DNA from: Acidobacteriota bacterium
Lineage (GTDB): Bacteria; Acidobacteriota; Terriglobia; Terriglobales; Acidobacteriaceae
Reading direction: 5' to 3'
Assembly (NCBI GenBank): GCA_021846275.1
Contig: JAJZBZ010000001.1
Span: forward strand, 682,001 to 746,000
Length of the DNA stretch: 64,000 nt
The translations under genes and the position numbers were made by a program. Under the pieces are notes generated by a model that was not told the origin of the DNA, ran no database searches, and saw nothing but the letters and a program-made list of their open reading frames with translations. Of this stretch, positions 5,346-32,599 are shown one piece after another. Within the stretch, counting starts at the first letter, position 1, and the number at the start of each line of letters is the position of its first letter.

Positions 5346-5720
5346 CTACTTCGGCATGCGCAGATACTGGAGCAACGCAGCCATCTGCGGCTCCGTAAAT
5401 CGCCCGGCGAAGCTCGGCATCTTGTTCTTCCCGTTCAGCACCACGCGCATCACCTCCAGATTCGTCGCCGGTGCGCCGCTCGGCAGCGTCGCCCGCGCCA
5501 GCACGCCGCGAATCTCCGGCGGTGCCGGCTTCAGGTCCAGATCGTTCTCCAGGTGGCAATGCGCGCATCGCTCGTCAAAAAGCCGCTTGCCCTCGGCCTG
5601 CTCGGCCGTCAGCGGCGAACCAGCCCGGCAGCCCGCCAGCGCCAGCGCAAGAGTCAGCGGCAACATCGACAAAAGCGCCGCGCCCGCCGCCACCAGCCAT
5701 CGCCCTCCGCTCCGCGCCAT
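5346..5720 (-). CDS. Small c-type cytochrome lipoprotein
   Basis: A 124-residue monohaem cytochrome c. A signal segment (about 8-30) ends in the lipobox LALAGC, so Cys31 is probably lipidated and the protein is membrane-anchored facing the periplasm. The haem site is C52-A-H-C55-H56, and Met101 in KNKMPSF is the likely sixth ligand, followed by the usual C-terminal helix. It resembles class I electron carriers, but the redox partner is unknown. It is the first gene of a leftward set leading into miaB. Haem attachment would use the Ccm proteins encoded at 33-36 kb. Confidence 0.88.
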   Translation of the reverse strand: MARSGGRWLVAAGAALLSMLPLTLALALAGCRAGSPLTAEQAEGKRLFDERCAHCHLENDLDLKPAPPEIRGVLARATLPSGAPATNLEVMRVVLNGKNKMPSFAGRFTEPQMAALLQYLRMPK

Positions 5721-5800
5721 GCTCTGATTCTACCTGCCTGCGACAGACCCTCCGCCGCGCCCGTTATCATCAATCTGGAGAGCGATTCAGGAGAGCCGCC

Positions 5801-6274
5801 ATGTCCGACTCGTCGTCACAGCCAGACTCAGCATCCGCCCAATCGCCAGCCCATCCCATCGAGCGGCTCAGCCACGGCCAGCGCAACCGCTGCTTCGGCT
5901 GCGGCGAAGACAATCCCGTCGGCCTCCATCTCCATTTCCGTCTGGAGCCGGACGGCTCCGTCAGCGCCGAAGCCACTCCCGGCACCAGCTACGAAGGCCC
6001 GCCCGGCCATCTCCACGGCGGCATCATCGCCACCCTCCTCGACGAAACCATGAGCAAGGCCAACCGCGCCAGTGGCGAAATCGCCCTCACACGCCAGCTT
6101 CAGGTCGAATACCTGCGCCCCATTCCCTCCACTCAGCCTGTCCGCCTCCACGGCCACGTCGAACGCATCGAAGGCCGCAAGCTCTGGACCGAGGCCACCA
6201 TCCAGGACGCCGAAGGCAACACCCTCGCCACCGGCAAGGGCTTCTTCATCTCCGTCATGAAAGCCCCCGCCTGA
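5801..6274 (+). CDS. PaaI-family hotdog-fold thioesterase
   Basis: A 157-residue cytosolic protein of the 4HBT/PaaI hotdog superfamily, expected to hydrolyse acyl-CoA thioesters. Typical features are the N-terminal CFGCGEDNPVGLHL block and the active-site region GPPGHLHGGIIATLLDETM, in which H-G-G and the later Asp/Glu match the family. A C-terminal beta strand follows. The start at 5801 was chosen because AGGAG lies 7 bases upstream and the long proline/arginine-rich reading upstream looks noncoding. It is divergent from the cytochrome c gene and is followed by the repeat array. The substrate is unknown. Confidence 0.85.
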   Translation: MSDSSSQPDSASAQSPAHPIERLSHGQRNRCFGCGEDNPVGLHLHFRLEPDGSVSAEATPGTSYEGPPGHLHGGIIATLLDETMSKANRASGEIALTRQLQVEYLRPIPSTQPVRLHGHVERIEGRKLWTEATIQDAEGNTLATGKGFFISVMKAPA

Positions 6275-6310
6275 TCCCGCCACCCACACCGGCCACCTTC
6301 CCCGTTCTCG

Positions 6311-6466
6311 TTGCTCCCGCCTTTGCTGTTGCCTTTGCTTTTTTTGTTGTCATTCCCGAAGGGAATCTGCTGTTCCCATCAGCCTCAGCAAGCGCCCACC
6401 CGCGACCAGCGGGAGCGGTAACCACCGTCCGTGGCGCGCAAAGCGCGCGTCCGCTGCATGCAATGC
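6311..6466 (-). repeat. Dispersed modular repeat, locus 1 unit 1 (inverted orientation)
   Basis: Read on the minus strand this unit has module B (6392-6466), with a GCGCGC-TTT-GCGCGC hairpin and a CCCGC-TGGTC-GCGGG hairpin. A spacer containing GAGGCTGATGGGAA follows. Next is module A (6352-6366), the palindrome ATTCCC-TTC-GGGAAT, and then a purine-rich tail with CAAAGGC motifs. It is nearly identical to unit 3 over about 118 bases and to copies at 28.96 kb and 32.2 kb. No protein is encoded. Confidence 0.9.
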
Positions 6467-6541
6467 CCCGAAGGGAATCTGCCTTTGCTCTTGCCTTCGT
6501 TCTTTTGGTTGTCATTCCCGAAGGGAATCTGCTTCTGCTCT
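6467..6541 (-). repeat. Dispersed repeat locus 1, extra module A plus tail (50-base tandem period)
   Basis: The module A palindrome plus its pyrimidine-rich tail (plus strand: TTTGCTCTTGCCTTCG) is repeated with a 50-base period. Cores lie at 6464-6478 (left half degraded), 6514-6528 and 6564-6578. Part of the element has therefore duplicated in tandem without module B. Confidence 0.85.
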
Positions 6542-6683
6542 TGCCTTCGTTCTTTTGGTTGTCATTCCCGAAGGGAATCTGCTTTTGCTTTTTGCTTCAC
6601 CCGCAGCCACAGCCGCCCGCGACCATCGGGAGCGGTAACAACCGTCCGTGGCGCGTAAAGCGCGCGTCCGCTGCATGCAATGC
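6542..6683 (-). repeat. Dispersed modular repeat, locus 1 unit 2
   Basis: A complete unit with module A at 6564-6578 and module B at 6612-6683. It differs from units 1 and 3 by a few substitutions (GCGTAAAGCGC in the first hairpin, CATCGGG in the second) and by a different spacer, so it diverged before or independently of the unit 1/unit 3 duplication. Confidence 0.87.
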
Positions 6684-6845
6684 CCCGAAGGGAATCTGCC
6701 TTTGCTCTTGCCTTCGTTCTTTTGGTTGTCATTCCCGAAGGGAATCTGCTGTTCCCATCAGCCTCAGCAAGCGCCCACCCGCGACCAGCGGGAGCGGTAA
6801 CAACCGTCCGTGGCGCGCAAAGCGCGCGTCCGCTGCATGCAATGC
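6684..6845 (-). repeat. Dispersed modular repeat, locus 1 unit 3
   Basis: A complete unit with tail from 6684, module A at 6731-6745 and module B at 6771-6845. From about 6727 it is almost base-for-base the same as unit 1 (6348-6466), which points to recent duplication or gene conversion inside the array. Confidence 0.88.
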
Positions 6846-7180
6846 AATTATTTCTCTTTGTGCTACAGTCATTGCATCACGGTCCGCCCGCCTGCGACTG
6901 GCAAGCGCGATGAATTACCAATCAGTAAATATTTCACCTTATTTTCGTTAACAAGAAAATTAATACCACCCCCCCTGGGGGGGTAACCGGGTTAATAGCG
7001 AATTGGTATACACCGGAAAATCGATGGATAGAAATGATTCCATTGCTGTTAGATCGGATTTTAGCAAAACGGCTCCAAACAGAATCTTCAACCCAAAGCA
7101 AGGCTTTCGCGCAAAAAACCTGCTCCGAAGCCGCCAGAATCTCTCGCAACCGCACGCAAAATACGCTTCGGTCCGGTGAC
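6846..7180. other. AT-rich intergenic island with a C7/G7 palindrome
   Basis: No gene is seen. The stretch from about 6846 to 7060 is clearly more AT-rich than its surroundings. It contains the perfect inverted repeat ACCCCCCCTGGGGGGGT at 6968-6984, flanked by TAAT on the left and AACC on the right. A related sequence on the opposite strand lies in the second AT-rich island at 28.69 kb. Long readings through it look noncoding. Confidence 0.6.
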
Positions 7181-7221
7181 GCATGCGCACTACAATCGAG
7201 CAAGCAGGAGATCACTTTTCC

Positions 7222-8034
7222 ATGCCCGTCACACGCGCCATCGAGAGCCGGAACAATCCGCGCCTGCGCCAGCTTCGCACGGCCTTCGCGCGGCCCGCGC
7301 GATCCACCGATCTGGCCGCGCTCGAAGGCTTCCATCTCGTCGAAGAAGCGCTCGCCAGCCGTGTCGACGTGCAGACGATCTTCATCGCCTCCGGCCACGA
7401 ATCCGCTCTCGACGCGCTGCAAGTTCCAGCGTCCGTTGAGATTCTCTCCGTTCCCGCTCCGCTGCTCGCCGCAGCCGTCACCACGGAGTCGCCACAGCCC
7501 ATCGCCGCGCTCTTCACCCCGCCGCGCTGGCCGTGGTCGGCGCTGCTCGGCCCCGGTTCCAGGCCGCGCAATCCGGCTCCGCTGCTCGTCGTGCTCGCCG
7601 GCCTTCAGGATCCCGGCAATCTCGGCACCATCCTGCGCTCCGCCGAAGCCTTCGGCGCAGACGGAGCGATTCTGCTGCCCGGCACCGTCAGCCCGTGGAA
7701 TCCCAAAGCCATGCGCGCCTCGGCAGGCAGCGTCTTTCGCCTGCCCACGCTCACACTGGGCGTCGAAGAGTGTTTCCGCCATCTCGCGGAAGCGGGCATC
7801 GCCGCCGTCGCCGCCATGCCGCGTGACGAGCGGCAAGCCAGCGCTGAAACACTCCTCGCACAGCCCGTCGCGCTCGTCATCGGCTCCGAGGGCGCGGGCA
7901 TCGCGCCGGAGATTGCCGCACTCTGCCCTCAGTCGGCAACAATCCCCTGCCCAGGCCCGGTCGAAAGCCTGAACGCCGCCGTCGCCGCCAGCATCCTGCT
8001 CTACGAAGCCTCGCGCCACAGGCGGCCACGTTGA
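7222..8034 (+). CDS. SpoU/TrmH-family RNA 2'-O-methyltransferase
   Basis: A SPOUT-class methyltransferase that methylates ribose 2'-OH in rRNA or tRNA. About 270 residues. The N-terminal substrate-binding domain (residues 1-105) begins SRNNPRLRQLR and includes EGFHLVEEAL. The catalytic SpoU domain holds the three motifs VVLAGLQDPGNLGTILRSAEAFGAD, ALVIGSEGAGI and PCPGPVESLNAAVAASILLYE. The chosen start has GCAGGAG upstream; an in-frame ATG at 7183 lacks one. Its stop overlaps the TTG start of rarA, so the two genes are probably co-transcribed. The specific RNA target cannot be told from sequence. Confidence 0.88.
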   Translation: MPVTRAIESRNNPRLRQLRTAFARPARSTDLAALEGFHLVEEALASRVDVQTIFIASGHESALDALQVPASVEILSVPAPLLAAAVTTESPQPIAALFTPPRWPWSALLGPGSRPRNPAPLLVVLAGLQDPGNLGTILRSAEAFGADGAILLPGTVSPWNPKAMRASAGSVFRLPTLTLGVEECFRHLAEAGIAAVAAMPRDERQASAETLLAQPVALVIGSEGAGIAPEIAALCPQSATIPCPGPVESLNAAVAASILLYEASRHRRPR

Positions 8035-27016: not shown

Positions 27017-28513
27017 TTGCGCCAAATTCTCTTTTACGCTCTTTGCGTGGTTACGACGACCGCGCTCGCCGCCAGCCATGCTCCCTCCGCACTGGCACAA
27101 TCGACATCCGGGGTTGAAACAAAAACCTCGACGCCGCCGGTTGTGTTTTCACTGTATGACCGGACGCGCGAAGATACGTGGCAGTGGTTCGCCGCGCCGG
27201 GCTATTCCGAGACGTATCCGTACACGGAATCGCTGCTGCGCATGAGCCTGGCACAGCGGCTGCGCCACTGGGACTGGATGGCGGAGCTGGCGCAGCCAGC
27301 ATTGCTGGGGCTGCCGACCGACGCTGTCTCGACGAACGCGGCGCAGGGGCAGCTTGGACTGGGCGGAACGTACTACGCGGCCGGTGGAAACAATGCCGAC
27401 CCGGCGGCGGCGTTTTTCAAGCAGGGCTTTGTGCGCTACCACTTCGACAGGCCGGACACGTCGCTGCGCCTGGGGCGGTTTGAGTTTTTCGAGGGCGTGG
27501 AACTGTCGCCGATGAATCCGCAACTGCTGTGGCTGCAGAACAATCGCATCCAGCAGCGACTGGTGGGCAACTTCGGATTCACCAATGCGCAGCGCAGCTT
27601 CGACGGTATTGACGGGCATCTGGGCGTGAAGGGATCGGATATTACAGCCTTTGCCGGACGCGCGGATCAGGGTGTCTTCAACATGAACGGCAATCCGGAA
27701 CTGAATGTCGATTTGCAGTATCTCTCTTTCTCGCGCATCGATGCGCAGGGGCACATTTTGTGGCGCGCCTTTGCGATTGCCTATCATGACGGACGCACGG
27801 GCATCACCAAGACGGACAATCGACCGCTGGCGGTGCGCGCGGCGGATCACCAGAATATCCGCATTGGCACGTATGGCGGTGATCTGGTTGCGAGCGCTCC
27901 CGTGGCGCGTGGCAACGTGGATTTCCTCTTCTGGGGCGCGCTGCAGAACGGCTCCTGGGGCGAGCAGTCGCACTCCGGCAACGCGGTGGCCGTGGAAGGC
28001 GGATACCAGATGACGCATGTGGCCTCAGTTCCTTGGCTGCGGGCGGGCTACTATCGCGGCAGCGGCGACAACAACCCGAACGACACGAAGCACACGACGT
28101 TTTTTCAGTTGCTGCCGACGCCGCGTGTTTACGCACGGACGCCGTTTTATAACCTGATGAACAATCAGGACTCGTTCATCGAAGCGATTGACCGGCCGGC
28201 GAAGAAGCTGGAGCTGCGCAGCGATCTGCGCTGGCTGCAACTGACCTCCGGCAACGACCTGTGGTATCAGGGCGGCGGCGCGTTTGATAACAAGGTCTTC
28301 GGCTATGTGGGACGACCAGGAAATGGCCACAACAGCTTCACTTCGCTGTGGGATATTTCCTCGGACTGGCAGACGACGCGAGACCTGGCGCTGAATTTCT
28401 ACTACGGGCGCGCGTGGGGCAAGAGCGTCGTCGGCGCGATCTATCCAACGGATCGCAATCTGCAATTCGGCTACGCCGAGTTGGTGTATCACTTCAGCCG
28501 ACCGATTCGCTGA
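27017..28513 (+). CDS. Outer-membrane beta-barrel of the alginate-export/porin type
   Basis: A 498-residue protein with a signal peptide (1-27, ending SALAQS). Alternating amphipathic strands rich in aromatic residues run throughout, ending YAELVYHFSRPIR. Segments such as GFVRYHFDRPDTSLRLGRFEFFEGVE and LQNNRIQQRLVGNFGFTNAQRSFDGI are typical of alginate_exp domain barrels. It probably lets organic solutes cross the outer membrane; the substrate is unknown. The TTG start has TGAGG 7 bases upstream. It follows the icd-mdh terminator and is followed by an AT-rich noncoding region. Confidence 0.82.
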   Translation: MRQILFYALCVVTTTALAASHAPSALAQSTSGVETKTSTPPVVFSLYDRTREDTWQWFAAPGYSETYPYTESLLRMSLAQRLRHWDWMAELAQPALLGLPTDAVSTNAAQGQLGLGGTYYAAGGNNADPAAAFFKQGFVRYHFDRPDTSLRLGRFEFFEGVELSPMNPQLLWLQNNRIQQRLVGNFGFTNAQRSFDGIDGHLGVKGSDITAFAGRADQGVFNMNGNPELNVDLQYLSFSRIDAQGHILWRAFAIAYHDGRTGITKTDNRPLAVRAADHQNIRIGTYGGDLVASAPVARGNVDFLFWGALQNGSWGEQSHSGNAVAVEGGYQMTHVASVPWLRAGYYRGSGDNNPNDTKHTTFFQLLPTPRVYARTPFYNLMNNQDSFIEAIDRPAKKLELRSDLRWLQLTSGNDLWYQGGGAFDNKVFGYVGRPGNGHNSFTSLWDISSDWQTTRDLALNFYYGRAWGKSVVGAIYPTDRNLQFGYAELVYHFSRPIR

Positions 28514-28609
28514 AGCATGGCATGCGGCAGCCGCGACCTTTGATCGCCACGCGGATCTGTGGCGCAATCGACGGTCGCGGGGAGCTTTTGAGCTAGACAT
28601 CTGGGAGAA

Positions 28610-28860: not shown

Positions 28861-28960
28861 TGGTTCGGGTCTTTCCGCTCCCTCCGGACGACTCGAAGCT
28901 GCCGGGTTTGGGAAGCGGACGAACGTCTGGAACGACAGTATGACAGAAATGGAAATAATT

Positions 28961-29115
28961 GCATGCAGCGGGCGCGCGCTTTGCGCGCCACGGGCGGTTG
29001 TTGCCGCTCCCGCTGGTCGCGGGTGGGCTGTGATTGAGGACGACGGGAAGGCAAAACAAAGACAGAAGCAGATTCCCTTCGGGAATGACAACAGAAAAGC
29101 AACGGCAAAAACAAC
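28961..29115 (+). repeat. Dispersed modular repeat, locus 2
   Basis: Single copy in the orientation B-spacer-A-tail. Module B is at 28961-29030 (hairpin GCGCGCTTTGCGCGC and hairpin CCCGC-TGGTC-GCGGG). The spacer holds GAGGACGACGGGAA, module A palindrome ATTCCCTTCGGGAAT is at 29072-29086, and a tail of CAACGGC motifs follows. Confidence 0.88.
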
Positions 29116-29192
29116 GGCAGCGATGGCGCTGACATGAGTTTTTCCCACCGAAGCGGAGCTTGGATGGGGCACCCTCTTTGGTGGAGGACGGC

Positions 29193-30218: not shown

Positions 30219-32210
30219 ATGGATTTTCAACTGGTGACAAGCTATGCGCCGCGCGGGGACCAGCCGAGGGCGATTGAGGAGCTGGTGAGCGGGCTGGCGG
30301 CGGGCGAGCAGCATCAGGTGCTGCTGGGCGTGACGGGTTCAGGCAAGACGTTCACGATGGCGAAGGTGATCGAGACGGTGAACAGGCCGGCGCTGATTCT
30401 GGCGCATAACAAGACCCTCGCCGCGCAGCTTTACAACGAGTTTCGGCAGTTTTTTCCGGGCAATGCGGTCGAGTACTTTGTGAGCTACTACGACTATTAC
30501 CAGCCGGAGGCGTATGTGCCGGCGGGCGACCTGTATATCGAAAAAGAGGCGACGGTGAATGAGGAGCTGGACAAGCTGCGGCTGTCGGCGACGCGTTCGC
30601 TGTTTGAGCGGCGCGATGCGATCATTGTCAGCTCGGTGAGCTGCATTTACGGACTGGGTTCGCCGGAGGCTTACTACGGGATGCTGCTGCTGCTGGAGCG
30701 GGGGCAGCGGATCAGCCGCAAGGATATTGTGCGGCGGCTGGTGGAGATTCTGTATGAGCGGAACGATGTGGATTTTCGGCGTGGGACGTTTCGCGTGCGC
30801 GGAGACGTGATCGAGGTGTATCCGACGTATGACGAGTGCGCATACCGGATCGAGATGTTTGGCGACGAGATTGAGACGCTGGCGCAGATTGATCCGCTGT
30901 TCGGGACGGTGAAGCAGAAGTATGCGCGGCTGCCGATCTATCCCAAGAGCCATTACGTCGTCCAGCCGGAGCGCAAGGCGCAGGCGATCGACAGCATTGT
31001 GGCGGAGCTGACGGAGTGGGAGGCGCAACTGGAAAAAGAAGGGCGCATGGTGGAGGCGCAGCGGATTCACCAGCGGGTGCGGTTTGATCTGGAGATGATC
31101 AAGTCGATGGGCTATTGCCACGGGATTGAGAACTATTCGCGGCATTTTTCGGGGCGGCTGCCGGGCGAGCCTCCGCCGACGCTGCTGGATTATTTTCCGC
31201 GGGATTTTCTGGTGTTCATCGATGAGTCGCATGTGACGATGCCGCAGGTGCATGGGATGTGGCATGGAGACAGGAGCCGGAAGCAGACGCTGGTCGATTA
31301 TGGGTTTCGTCTGCCGTCGGCGCTGGACAATCGGCCGCTGAAGTTTGAGGAATTTGAGAGCCGCGTGAATCAGTTGATCTACGTCTCGGCGACGCCGGGG
31401 CCGTATGAGCTGACGAAGGCGGCGGGAGTGGTGGTGGAGCAGGTGATTCGCCCGACGGGACTGGTGGACCCTGAGGTGGAGGTTCGTCCGGTGAAGGGGC
31501 AGATTGACGATCTGCTGGGCGAGATTCGCGCGCGGGCGAAGCGGAACGAGCGAGTGCTGGTGACGACGCTGACGAAGCGGATGTCGGAGGATCTGGCGGG
31601 GTATTACACGGAGGTGGGCGTGCGCTGCCGGTATATGCACTCGGAGATTGAGACGCTGGAGCGGGTGAAGATTCTGGCGGGGCTGCGCAAGGGCGAGTAT
31701 GACGTGCTGATCGGGATCAACCTGCTGCGTGAAGGGCTGGACCTGCCGGAGGTTTCGCTGGTGGCGATTCTGGACGCCGATAAGGAGGGATTTCTGCGCT
31801 CGACGGGCGCGATGATCCAGACGATTGGCCGCGCTGCGCGAAATGTGGAGGGTCGCGCGATTCTTTATGCGGACAGGATGACGGATTCGATGCGGCGCGC
31901 GATTGAGGAGACGGATCGGAGGCGGGCGATCCAGCGGGAATATAACGAGAAGCACGGGATTGTGCCGCAGACGATTCTGAAGAGCATGGACGCGGGGCTG
32001 GCGGCGATCCTGAAGGCGGAGTACGGCGATCCGGTGGAGACGGTGACGGAGGACAAAACGGAGTTTGCCAGCCAGGCAGAGCTGGACGAGTACCTGGTCG
32101 GAATGGAGACGCAGATGCGCGAGGCGGCGCAGAGGTTCGAGTTTGAGCGGGCGGCAAAGCTGCGCGATCTGCTGAAGGAGCTGCGGGAAAAAGAGTTCCT
32201 GTTCGGCTAG
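30219..32210 (+). CDS. uvrB: Excinuclease ABC subunit B
   Basis: The damage-verifying helicase of nucleotide excision repair. 663 residues. Walker A is [17 protein letters not shown], followed by the beta-hairpin region [16 protein letters not shown], the Walker B region [15 protein letters not shown] and helicase motif V/VI segments [25 protein letters not shown] and [11 protein letters not shown]-terminal UVR domain for UvrC binding (about 625-660, [25 protein letters not shown]) closes it. TGAGG stands close to the ATG. The dispersed repeat begins 4 bases after the stop. Confidence 0.97.
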
Positions 32211-32214
32211 CAGG

Positions 32215-32370
32215 GCATTGCATGCAGAAGACGCGCGTTCGCGCGCCACGGCCATTTGTTACCGCTTCCGTTGGTCGCGGGTGGGCTGTGGCTGAGGACG
32301 ATGGGAAAGACGGAAGCAGATTCCCTTCAGGAATGACAACAAAAATGCAAAGGCCAGGGCAACGGCAACA
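32215..32370 (+). repeat. Dispersed modular repeat, locus 3
   Basis: Orientation B-spacer-A-tail. Module B is at 32215-32290, with stem changes that mostly keep pairing: GCGCG-TT-CGCGC and a G-T-rich version of the second hairpin. The spacer has GCTGAGGACGATGGGAA. Module A is at 32320-32334 with one broken pair (ATTCCCTTCAGGAAT), followed by a CAAAGGC/CAACGGC tail. Confidence 0.85.
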
Positions 32371-32375
32371 GCTTA

Positions 32376-32442
32376 TGACGACTGACGGGTGACTGCTGAC
32401 GACTGACGACTTAACAGCAGATTTCCGGAGGAAATGACAGGG
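32376..32442 (+). repeat. GACGACTGAC short repeats and a variant module A
   Basis: Short tandem words GACGACTGAC occupy 32376-32410. They lead into ATTTCCGGAGGAAAT at 32421-32435. This keeps the flanks of module A (AGCAGA before, GACA after) but has T-A in place of C-G in the stem on both arms. Confidence 0.6.
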
Positions 32443-32599
32443 GGAAAAGCAAAGGCGGACCAACTGCAAGCGCGTGCGAGAGGCCAGCGTGTGTCTGAGG
32501 CAACCAGAGTGATGCGGATGTCATCCTAGGGATGAGCTCGACGATTTCCGGGAAGGCTGGAGAGCTGGCTTGCTGAGGCTGATTCGGCACAAGTTGAAC

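What the first reader, a model, noticed from the sequence alone, without database searches (positions are those of the whole stretch)
6311..6845. Dispersed modular intergenic repeat with three hairpins, arrayed beside the thioesterase gene
Three full units and one partial unit lie in a row, and single copies recur at 28.96 kb and 32.2 kb. Each unit has the same order: two GC hairpins (module B), a spacer with GAGG(C/A)NGATGGGAA, the ATTCCC/GGGAAT hairpin (module A), and a purine-rich tail. The fixed architecture, both orientations and intergenic-only placement resemble REP/REPIN or MITE-like elements, but no matching family is known to me and no RAYT transposase is in the window.
Basis: seen in the sequence. 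Interest (0 to 1): 0.65.

Follow-up and report, generated by a model that had tools for sequence, protein, structure and literature searches.

The report
Strand-oriented DNA hairpin repeats between genes
A bacterium of the Acidobacteriaceae carries dozens of small hairpin-forming DNA cassettes placed just after genes, and they almost always point the same way relative to which DNA strand is locally G-rich, which suggests that they spread or act during DNA copying rather than as RNA.

Summary
The repeat is real, and it is dispersed genome-wide and genus-wide: 109 blastn matches to one unit in the own genome; 142 profile hits in 51 clusters in the loci fetched. Module B has three hairpins with compensatory changes (51 two-sided cells, 13.4 in shuffles) and a REP-like GTGG foot on its middle hairpin (49/56 aligned copies). 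Module A is a 6-bp hairpin. Copies are intergenic (46/46 B, 38/41 A in 717 kb), and B often ends close to stop codons (11 of 16 that face one).

Main new result: orientation ignores gene direction (17:14 in tandem pairs) but follows local G/C strand asymmetry in 50/51 own clusters and 14/14 A sites in strongly skewed DNA of another genus (15/19 overall). Skew is stronger on the A side (35/49, p=3e-5).

This argues for a DNA-level, strand-polar, REP-like element, probably inserted through single-stranded DNA, then grown in tandem. Membership is unproven: no Y1 (RAYT-type) gene is detectable in the own genome, and no B but one A was found at 23 Y1 loci of relatives. Helper and cause of the skew domains are unknown.

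The parts
6311..6845 (+). tandem array of A and B modules with pyrimidine-rich TTGCC/TTTGCT spacers
6352..6366 (+). A hairpin ATTCCC-GAA-GGGAAT
   Evidence: folds as DNA hairpin on both strands
6399..6466 (+). B module (three hairpins), copy 1
6466..6479 (+). truncated A fused to the B end
6514..6528 (+). A hairpin
6564..6578 (+). A hairpin
6616..6683 (+). B module, copy 2
6683..6696 (+). truncated A fused to the B end
6731..6745 (+). A hairpin
6778..6845 (+). B module, copy 3; contains GTGG at the foot of the middle hairpin and ends in GCATGCAATGC
6900..7025 (+). module D, a second dispersed repeat, also found after B elsewhere (33 matches in the own genome at E<=0.1)
28515..28581 (-). degenerate B, 1 nt from the stop codon of the gene 27017-28513
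28958..29114 (-). single A+B unit (B 28958-29023, A 29072-29086)
29138..29174 (-). module C hairpin GGGTGCCCCATCC..GGTGGG
32216..32457 (-). A-like + A + B unit; B 32215-32281 ends 4 nt from the stop codon of the gene 30219-32210

Best explanation
The units are a non-autonomous, REP-like family of DNA hairpin elements that acts at the DNA level. Shown: conserved hairpins; a GTGG foot at the middle hairpin of full-length B; intergenic placement just 3' of genes; presence or absence, and also retention, at orthologous sites; orientation locked to local strand asymmetry and not to transcription. Inferred: copies were inserted as single-stranded DNA on one template strand of the replication fork by a hairpin-recognising enzyme of the HUH/Y1 (RAYT) kind or similar, now lost from or unrecognised in this genome. 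Selection then kept copies only between a stop codon and the next promoter, and arrays grew by tandem duplication and short-homology joining at the ATGC end of B. The identity of the enzyme is unknown.
For: Hairpins: 96.8% of stem cells paired; 5 pairs and 51 cells with two-sided changes, against 13.4 cells in shuffles and at most 6 in slid controls. H3 exists as GCAT/ATGC, CCAT/ATGG and CCAC/GTGG with the GCA loop kept (62, 6 and 2 of 78 own; 36, 9 and 4 of 60 in relatives). GTGG stands at the foot of H2 in 49 of 56 aligned copies, GTAG in 1 more. Stem mismatches G.T and A.C are equally rare (A 8 and 9 of 1836 cells, B 12 and 9 of 726), so no strand is favoured as RNA. Orientation: 50/51 clusters follow the local 4-fold-site skew; A 41/41, B 45/46, C 21/21 in 717 kb; relatives 27/30 and genome-contig loci 102/121 by raw skew; G127, another genus, 15/19 overall and 14/14 where the absolute 4-fold skew is at least 0.25. 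The cores have no skew of their own (A 0.00, B 0.02). Genes follow the skew in only 327/555, and arrays ignore tandem gene direction, 17:14. Intergenic. Present/absent at orthologous sites: three of five compared. PMC6006769 passages: IS200/IS605 Y1 transposases work on the lagging-strand template, and canonical REPs carry 5' GT[AG]G at the foot.
Against: No Y1 gene in the own genome at E<=1. Of 20 Y1 loci of the genus (the loci given for 35 matches) none has B and one has an A; 3 more in G127 have no A and no GCATGCAATG string. The GTGG foot is found in only 15 of 35 B copies of at least 60 nt in relatives, copies under 60 nt were not tested one by one, and A has no such foot. No precise empty site or target duplication could be read, because flanks are too diverged. 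Skew signs change within contigs more often than a single replication origin explains, so skew may not equal fork direction here. Two of five orthologous sites keep a B in the same orientation while the intergenic DNA has diverged, which hints at function at the site.
Confidence: 0.48

Rival explanations
1. A resident polar DNA site, not a parasite: the hairpins are an address read on one strand (a single-strand priming or fork-restart site, a Chi-like or nick site, or a segregation-orienting motif), and they help to create or keep the strand-asymmetry domains.
For: Skew is higher on the A side than on the B side in 35 of 49 clusters (means 0.61 and 0.47, Wilcoxon p=2.6e-5), at 20-40 kb 0.54 against 0.29. 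Mean absolute skew falls with distance from arrays, from 0.55 to 0.19. Compensatory change in H3 is seen at orthologous site 3, and a B is kept at sites 3 and 4. Several modules (A, B, C, D) share the orientation rule.
Against: Skew domains also occur in G025, of another family, where no unit was found. Sites differ between species in three of five cases. Neighbouring windows and arrays are not independent, so the distance trend is weak evidence (median skew at arrays 0.60 against 0.49 overall; 237 of 10000 random draws reach it). No protein is known.
Confidence: 0.23
2. RNA-level element: a 3'-UTR stabiliser or transcription terminator.
For: Placement right after stop codons: 11 of 16 B ends that face a stop lie within 18 nt, against 9% expected; intergenic spaces with B are densest between convergent, then tandem, then divergent genes, 5.3, 2.0 and 1.3 per 10 kb. 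One A hairpin scores as terminator-like.
Against: Orientation is random relative to tandem genes (17:14) and set by strand skew. Terminator-like sites in 6200-7300 are at chance level (2 found, 1.6 expected). No excess of G.U over A.C mismatches. No Rfam match in 5500-7300.
Confidence: 0.12
3. A MITE moved by a DDE-type transposase of another element.
For: Short, non-coding, dispersed, intergenic; module ends are joined to varied partners.
Against: No terminal inverted repeats pairing the two ends of a unit were seen, and B and A occur apart and in different contexts (G127: A alone in another ~115-bp context). A strict orientation rule is not expected for double-strand transposition (recalled).
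Confidence: 0.06

Closest known systems
REP / BIME elements (GTAG and CGTC super-families, PMC3733652, passages seen; TnpA-REP classes, PMC6006769, passages)
   Same: Small hairpins, high copy, intergenic, mostly 3' of genes between tandem or convergent ORFs, tandem groups, present in some species and not others. Canonical GT[AG]G foot: GTGG at the middle hairpin of full-length B (49/56). CGTC REPs also lack a dedicated transposase.
   Different: A has no such foot; no RAYT in the own genome; a fixed two-module architecture with three hairpins in B; orientation locked to local GC skew. I found no such skew rule in the passages read.
REPIN / tandem REP arrays of Pseudomonas fluorescens SBW25 (PMC3116915, passages seen)
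   Same: Alternating two-motif tandem arrays; there five lie forward at ~2 Mbp and six reverse at ~4 Mbp, i.e. also opposite on the two sides of the chromosome.
   Different: REPINs are inverted pairs; here 34 of 35 multi-hit clusters run in one direction, the other has one inverted B fragment (L038, C3:56.5 kb).
IS200/IS605 end hairpins and Y1 transposases (PMC6006769, passages seen)
   Same: Hairpins with conserved loops and conserved flanks; a strand-specific orientation is expected for lagging-strand insertion.
   Different: No Y1 gene in the own genome; no B and one A at the Y1 loci of relatives that I saw.
TIR families of acidobacterial TIRYT genes (PMC3733652, passages)
   Same: Y1-type genes with flanking repeats in T. 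saanensis, K. versatilis, A. capsulatum and G. mallensis; one such TIR is a repeat family in K. versatilis.
   Different: TIR sequences were in a figure that is not held, so they were not compared; the Y1 loci seen here carry no B and one A.

Membership tests
REP (RAYT-mobilised) | short palindromic hairpin, many intergenic copies | tested here: met
REP (RAYT-mobilised) | GT[AG]G (or CGTC) tetranucleotide at the foot of the hairpin | tested here: inconclusive
   Met for H2 of full-length B: GTGG 49/56, GTAG 1/56 aligned copies; 58/65 own and 15/35 relative copies of at least 60 nt. Not met for A (TTGTC..CTGC). Short B copies (16 own, 34 relative under 60 nt) were not tested one by one. GTGG could also be kept by pairing with CCAC upstream
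REP (RAYT-mobilised) | cognate Y1 (RAYT) gene in the genome, flanked by the repeats | tested here: not met
   0 in the own genome at E<=1; 20 Y1 loci of the genus: 0 with B, 1 with A; G127: 3 loci, no A, no GCATGCAATG. Loss after spreading is not excluded
REP (RAYT-mobilised) | location mostly 3' of genes, convergent and tandem | tested here: met
REPIN | two REPs in inverted orientation | tested here: not met
   34 of 35 multi-hit clusters have one strand only
IS200/IS605 derivative | orientation tied to the replication strand | tested here: inconclusive
   tied to local GC skew; whether skew equals fork direction is unknown
IS200/IS605 derivative | insertion 3' of a fixed short target, no duplication | tested here: inconclusive
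   flanks too diverged to read the empty site; no constant base string after B by eye
MITE | terminal inverted repeats and target duplication | tested here: inconclusive
   no end-to-end inverted repeat seen in the units; duplications not readable
intrinsic terminator | GC hairpin followed by a T run, above chance, oriented with transcription | tested here: not met
   2 found, 1.6 expected in 6200-7300; orientation 17:14 in tandem pairs
Rfam RNA family | covariance-model match | tested here: not met
   none at E<=1 in window 5500-7300

The most novel reading that the evidence does not exclude
The units are a chromosomal polarity code. Oriented single-strand hairpin sites mark, and perhaps set, domains in which one strand is made G-rich, because a polar DNA transaction (priming, fork restart, nicking or strand invasion) starts at B and runs out through A. 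That would make them cis-acting causes, not passengers, of the mosaic GC-skew domains of these bacteria.
Probability: 0.17. Interest if true: 0.88.

Novelty: new variant of a known kind. Interest (0 to 1): 0.62.

Why it matters
Small bacterial intergenic repeats are usually read as RNA signals or as dead selfish DNA. A family whose direction ignores genes but tracks strand asymmetry with almost no exception gives a clean handle on strand-specific insertion or function. It also points to an unexplained feature of these genomes: strong GC-skew domains of alternating sign (in the strongest, 4-fold sites about 70% G to 17% C). Both can be tested with one replication-profiling experiment in cultured Granulicella.

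Tried and rejected
Searches used an A pattern with a four-base loop; the true loop has three, so their counts are not used (the corrected pattern is; only brought in one more locus, L044). One search tested a junction structure for B with two helices in a wrong register; only its hairpin H2 result stood, and one search replaced it. The RNAalifold consensus gave 12 pairs, 2 with two-sided changes. A closing stem P1 (AGCGG/CCGCT) and an inner stem P3 were considered by eye on A1 and dropped, because no compensatory change was seen.

Gene calls come from a home-made codon-score caller. One search shows 2 of 51 clusters overlapping a called ORF (L054, L055). In one search the caller worked badly on the short contigs of relatives: 7 B ends facing stops (3 within 18 nt) and 35 facing starts, six of these at negative distance because ATG lies inside GCATGCAATGC. 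I did not repeat that table with a better caller, so stop-codon closeness is claimed for the own genome only.

Y2_Tnp was not found, but its control rang nowhere, so it says nothing. The B search over 150 family genomes scored at most 6 candidates a genome and missed two genomes of the own genus, so B may be wider than shown. CRISPR and integron attC were considered and rejected by recall of their features, without a tool test. 'Recent inversions cause the skew flips' was considered: several changes are gradual over about 8-12 kb (one in C7 near 202 kb is abrupt) and polarity is conserved between orthologues in 57 of 70 strong pairs, so it is unlikely as the only cause; but against that, with G004 alone the sign agrees in only 7 of 16 pairs and with G020+G015 in 9 of 25. 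'Units cause the skew' is weakened by G025. A strict search found no perfect H2 hairpin of at least 5 bp in 8 of 81 own and 13 of 69 relative B hits. Rows left out: alignment A2 used 56 of 70 full-length B candidates (39 of 51 own, 17 of 19 from relatives; one search list), and short-form B copies were not aligned. The genome contigs set was fetched with a GNA-loop pattern, so its loop census is biased towards GNA. In one search TrmH orthologues were counted many times; one search keeps one pair per own gene.

Full report
OBSERVATION. The array at 6311-6845 is as described: three B modules, four intact A hairpins and two truncated A copies fused to B ends. Single units lie on the other strand at 28958-29114 and 32216-32457.

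EXTENT. The window lies in a 3.34-Mb, 13-contig genome (98.6% complete). One unit gives 109 blastn matches at E<=1e-3. An iterated profile gives 142 hits in 51 clusters in the window and the 28 loci that I fetched around the places. The exact A pattern occurs 111 times, and the reversed control 0 times. The unit matches 15 of 15 genomes of the genus, own included, and 0 of 26 outside it. In 150 sampled genomes of the family, A occurs in 10, from 6 of 79 genera, own included; B, with low sensitivity, in 5, three of them outside the genus by partial matches. A B profile hit was seen in G147.

ANATOMY. On 56 distinct full-length B copies (39 own, 17 from relatives) three hairpins pair in 96.8% of cells, with 51 two-sided changes against 13.4 in shuffles and at most 6 in slid controls. 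H2 runs through GCGCGC/GCGCGC, GCGACC/GGTCGC, GCGAGC/GCTCGC and GCGGCC/GGCCGC. H3 runs through GCAT/ATGC, CCAT/ATGG and CCAC/GTGG with a GCA loop (62, 6 and 2 of 78 own; 36, 9 and 4 of 60 relatives). GTGG stands at the 5' foot of H2 in 49 of 56 (its last G also pairs), GTAG in one more; 58 of 65 own and 15 of 35 relative copies of at least 60 nt carry GT[AG]G at a stem foot. That is the foot named for canonical REPs in PMC6006769. The A loop is GAA or GCA in 79 of 83 own and 50 of 52 relative copies. That GNA triloops are very stable in DNA is recalled, not tested here. Mismatches in stems are equally often G.T and A.C, so there is no sign of RNA pairing on one strand. Single-sequence folds as DNA are only modestly better than shuffles: z -1.6 to -2.3 for A and two B copies, and 0.1 for B at 32215.

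PLACEMENT. In 717 kb of own sequence (C3, C7, C13 and the window) with 555 called genes, 46 of 46 B and 38 of 41 A are intergenic; intergenic spaces with B number 9 of 78 convergent, 11 of 328 tandem and 4 of 84 divergent, i.e. 5.3, 2.0 and 1.3 per 10 kb. B ends that face a stop codon lie within 18 nt of it in 11 of 16 cases, against 9.1% for random intergenic points; in the fetched own loci 21 of 25. B ends that face a start are 46 nt or more away in 19 of 20 cases there, and in 7 of 9. This fits insertion between a stop codon and the next promoter; at site 1 the promoter-like block after the array resembles that of the species that lacks the array (by eye).

ORIENTATION. Relative to genes there is no rule: in tandem gene pairs 17 clusters run with and 14 against transcription. 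Relative to local strand composition the rule is nearly absolute: the sense strand (A to B) lies on the G-poor strand in 50 of 51 own clusters, judged by 4-fold sites within 2.4 kb; the exception sits at skew -0.07. In the 717 kb: A 41/41, B 45/46, C 21/21, the D core 3/3; the heptamers follow it less strictly, 77/110. Raw skew gives 48/51 own, 27/30 relatives, 102/121 named-contig loci. In G127, of another genus, A sits in a different element of about 115 bp; 15 of 19 agree, 14 of 14 where the absolute 4-fold skew is at least 0.25. Module C there agrees in 9 of 9 with raw skew over 0.05. The A and B cores are themselves unskewed, and genes follow the skew in only 327 of 555, so neither composition nor transcription explains it. 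The skew is stronger on the A side (0.61) than on the B side (0.47), 35 of 49 pairs, p=2.6e-5; clusters close to each other are not fully independent.

THE SKEW ITSELF. In three positive domains 4-fold sites are 68-71% G and 16-19% C on one strand, and in two negative ones 17-25% G and 58-70% C; A/T skew is small (A 5-7%, T 6-10%). GC3 skew has the same sign in genes of both directions in the strongly skewed domains tested. Signs change along contigs, in several cases gradually over about 8-12 kb. Such skew is seen in G004 of the genus, more weakly and partly gene-strand-bound in two genera without units, and clearly in four of six stretches of G025. Polarity agrees in 57 of 70 strongly skewed orthologue pairs, though not with G004 or G020+G015 taken alone (7 of 16, 9 of 25). 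One replication origin would give two sign changes; four lie in 717 kb. I do not know the cause, and so cannot equate skew with fork direction.

EVOLUTION. Of five orthologous spaces compared, two hold units in both species in the same orientation (L043/L231, L053/L237); three differ: own filled and G005 with 56 bp to the called start, G008 filled and own with 55 bp, own filled and G003 without. So units differ between species and are sometimes retained.

HELPER. No Y1 transposase in the own genome at E<=1, while the control rang in 10 of 14 genomes. Ten of 15 genomes of the genus have one; of the 20 loci given for its 35 matches none has B and one has an A. Three Y1 loci of G127 have no A and no GCATGCAATG string. 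The flanks examined were about 1.5 kb or less.

MECHANISM AND RANK. The orientation rule speaks for a DNA-level, strand-specific process. The best-supported reading is a REP-like non-autonomous element inserted through single-stranded DNA (0.48); the bolder one is a polar DNA site with a function (0.23). An RNA role predicts orientation with transcription, which is not seen.

LITERATURE. Seen as passages: PMC3733652, PMC6006769, PMC3116915, PMC12306157 (a table row for Granulicella aggregans), PMC3174227 ('lack of strand bias' for Solibacter), PMC3910553. In the listings I saw titles and starts of abstracts; none names this family or the skew rule. Only open-licence papers are held.

NAMES.

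Noticed in passing
own genome G000, e.g. C3, C7, C13 and window 0-64 kb (sign change near 8-10 kb): Very strong GC-skew domains of alternating sign (4-fold sites up to ~70% G to 17% C, little A/T skew), the same for genes of both strands, several with gradual changes over ~10 kb; also in G004, G127 and G025.
   Followed up: partly
window 6900-7025: Module D: a second dispersed repeat with a CCCCCCC-T-GGGGGGG hairpin, 33 matches in the own genome, seen after B in several loci.
   Followed up: partly
window 29138-29174; L363-L378: Module C hairpin GGGTGCCCCAT..; stem sequence differs between genera (CCAAGC/GCTTGG, GTCCC/GGGAC) and orientation follows the skew.
   Followed up: partly
L363-L378 (G127): In another genus the same A hairpin sits in a different ~115-bp element, 19 of 19 sites intergenic; a further dispersed string CACGTCATCTCGACCGAAG lies beside several copies.
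   Followed up: partly
L043, L047, L055, L057, L063: Tandem heptamers of the GTCAGTC/GTCAGCC type inside arrays, likely variable-number repeats.
   Followed up: no
L381 6022-6105 (G147): A B-like element (profile E 2e-9) in a single-contig genome of another genus, where origin and orientation could be tested.
   Followed up: no
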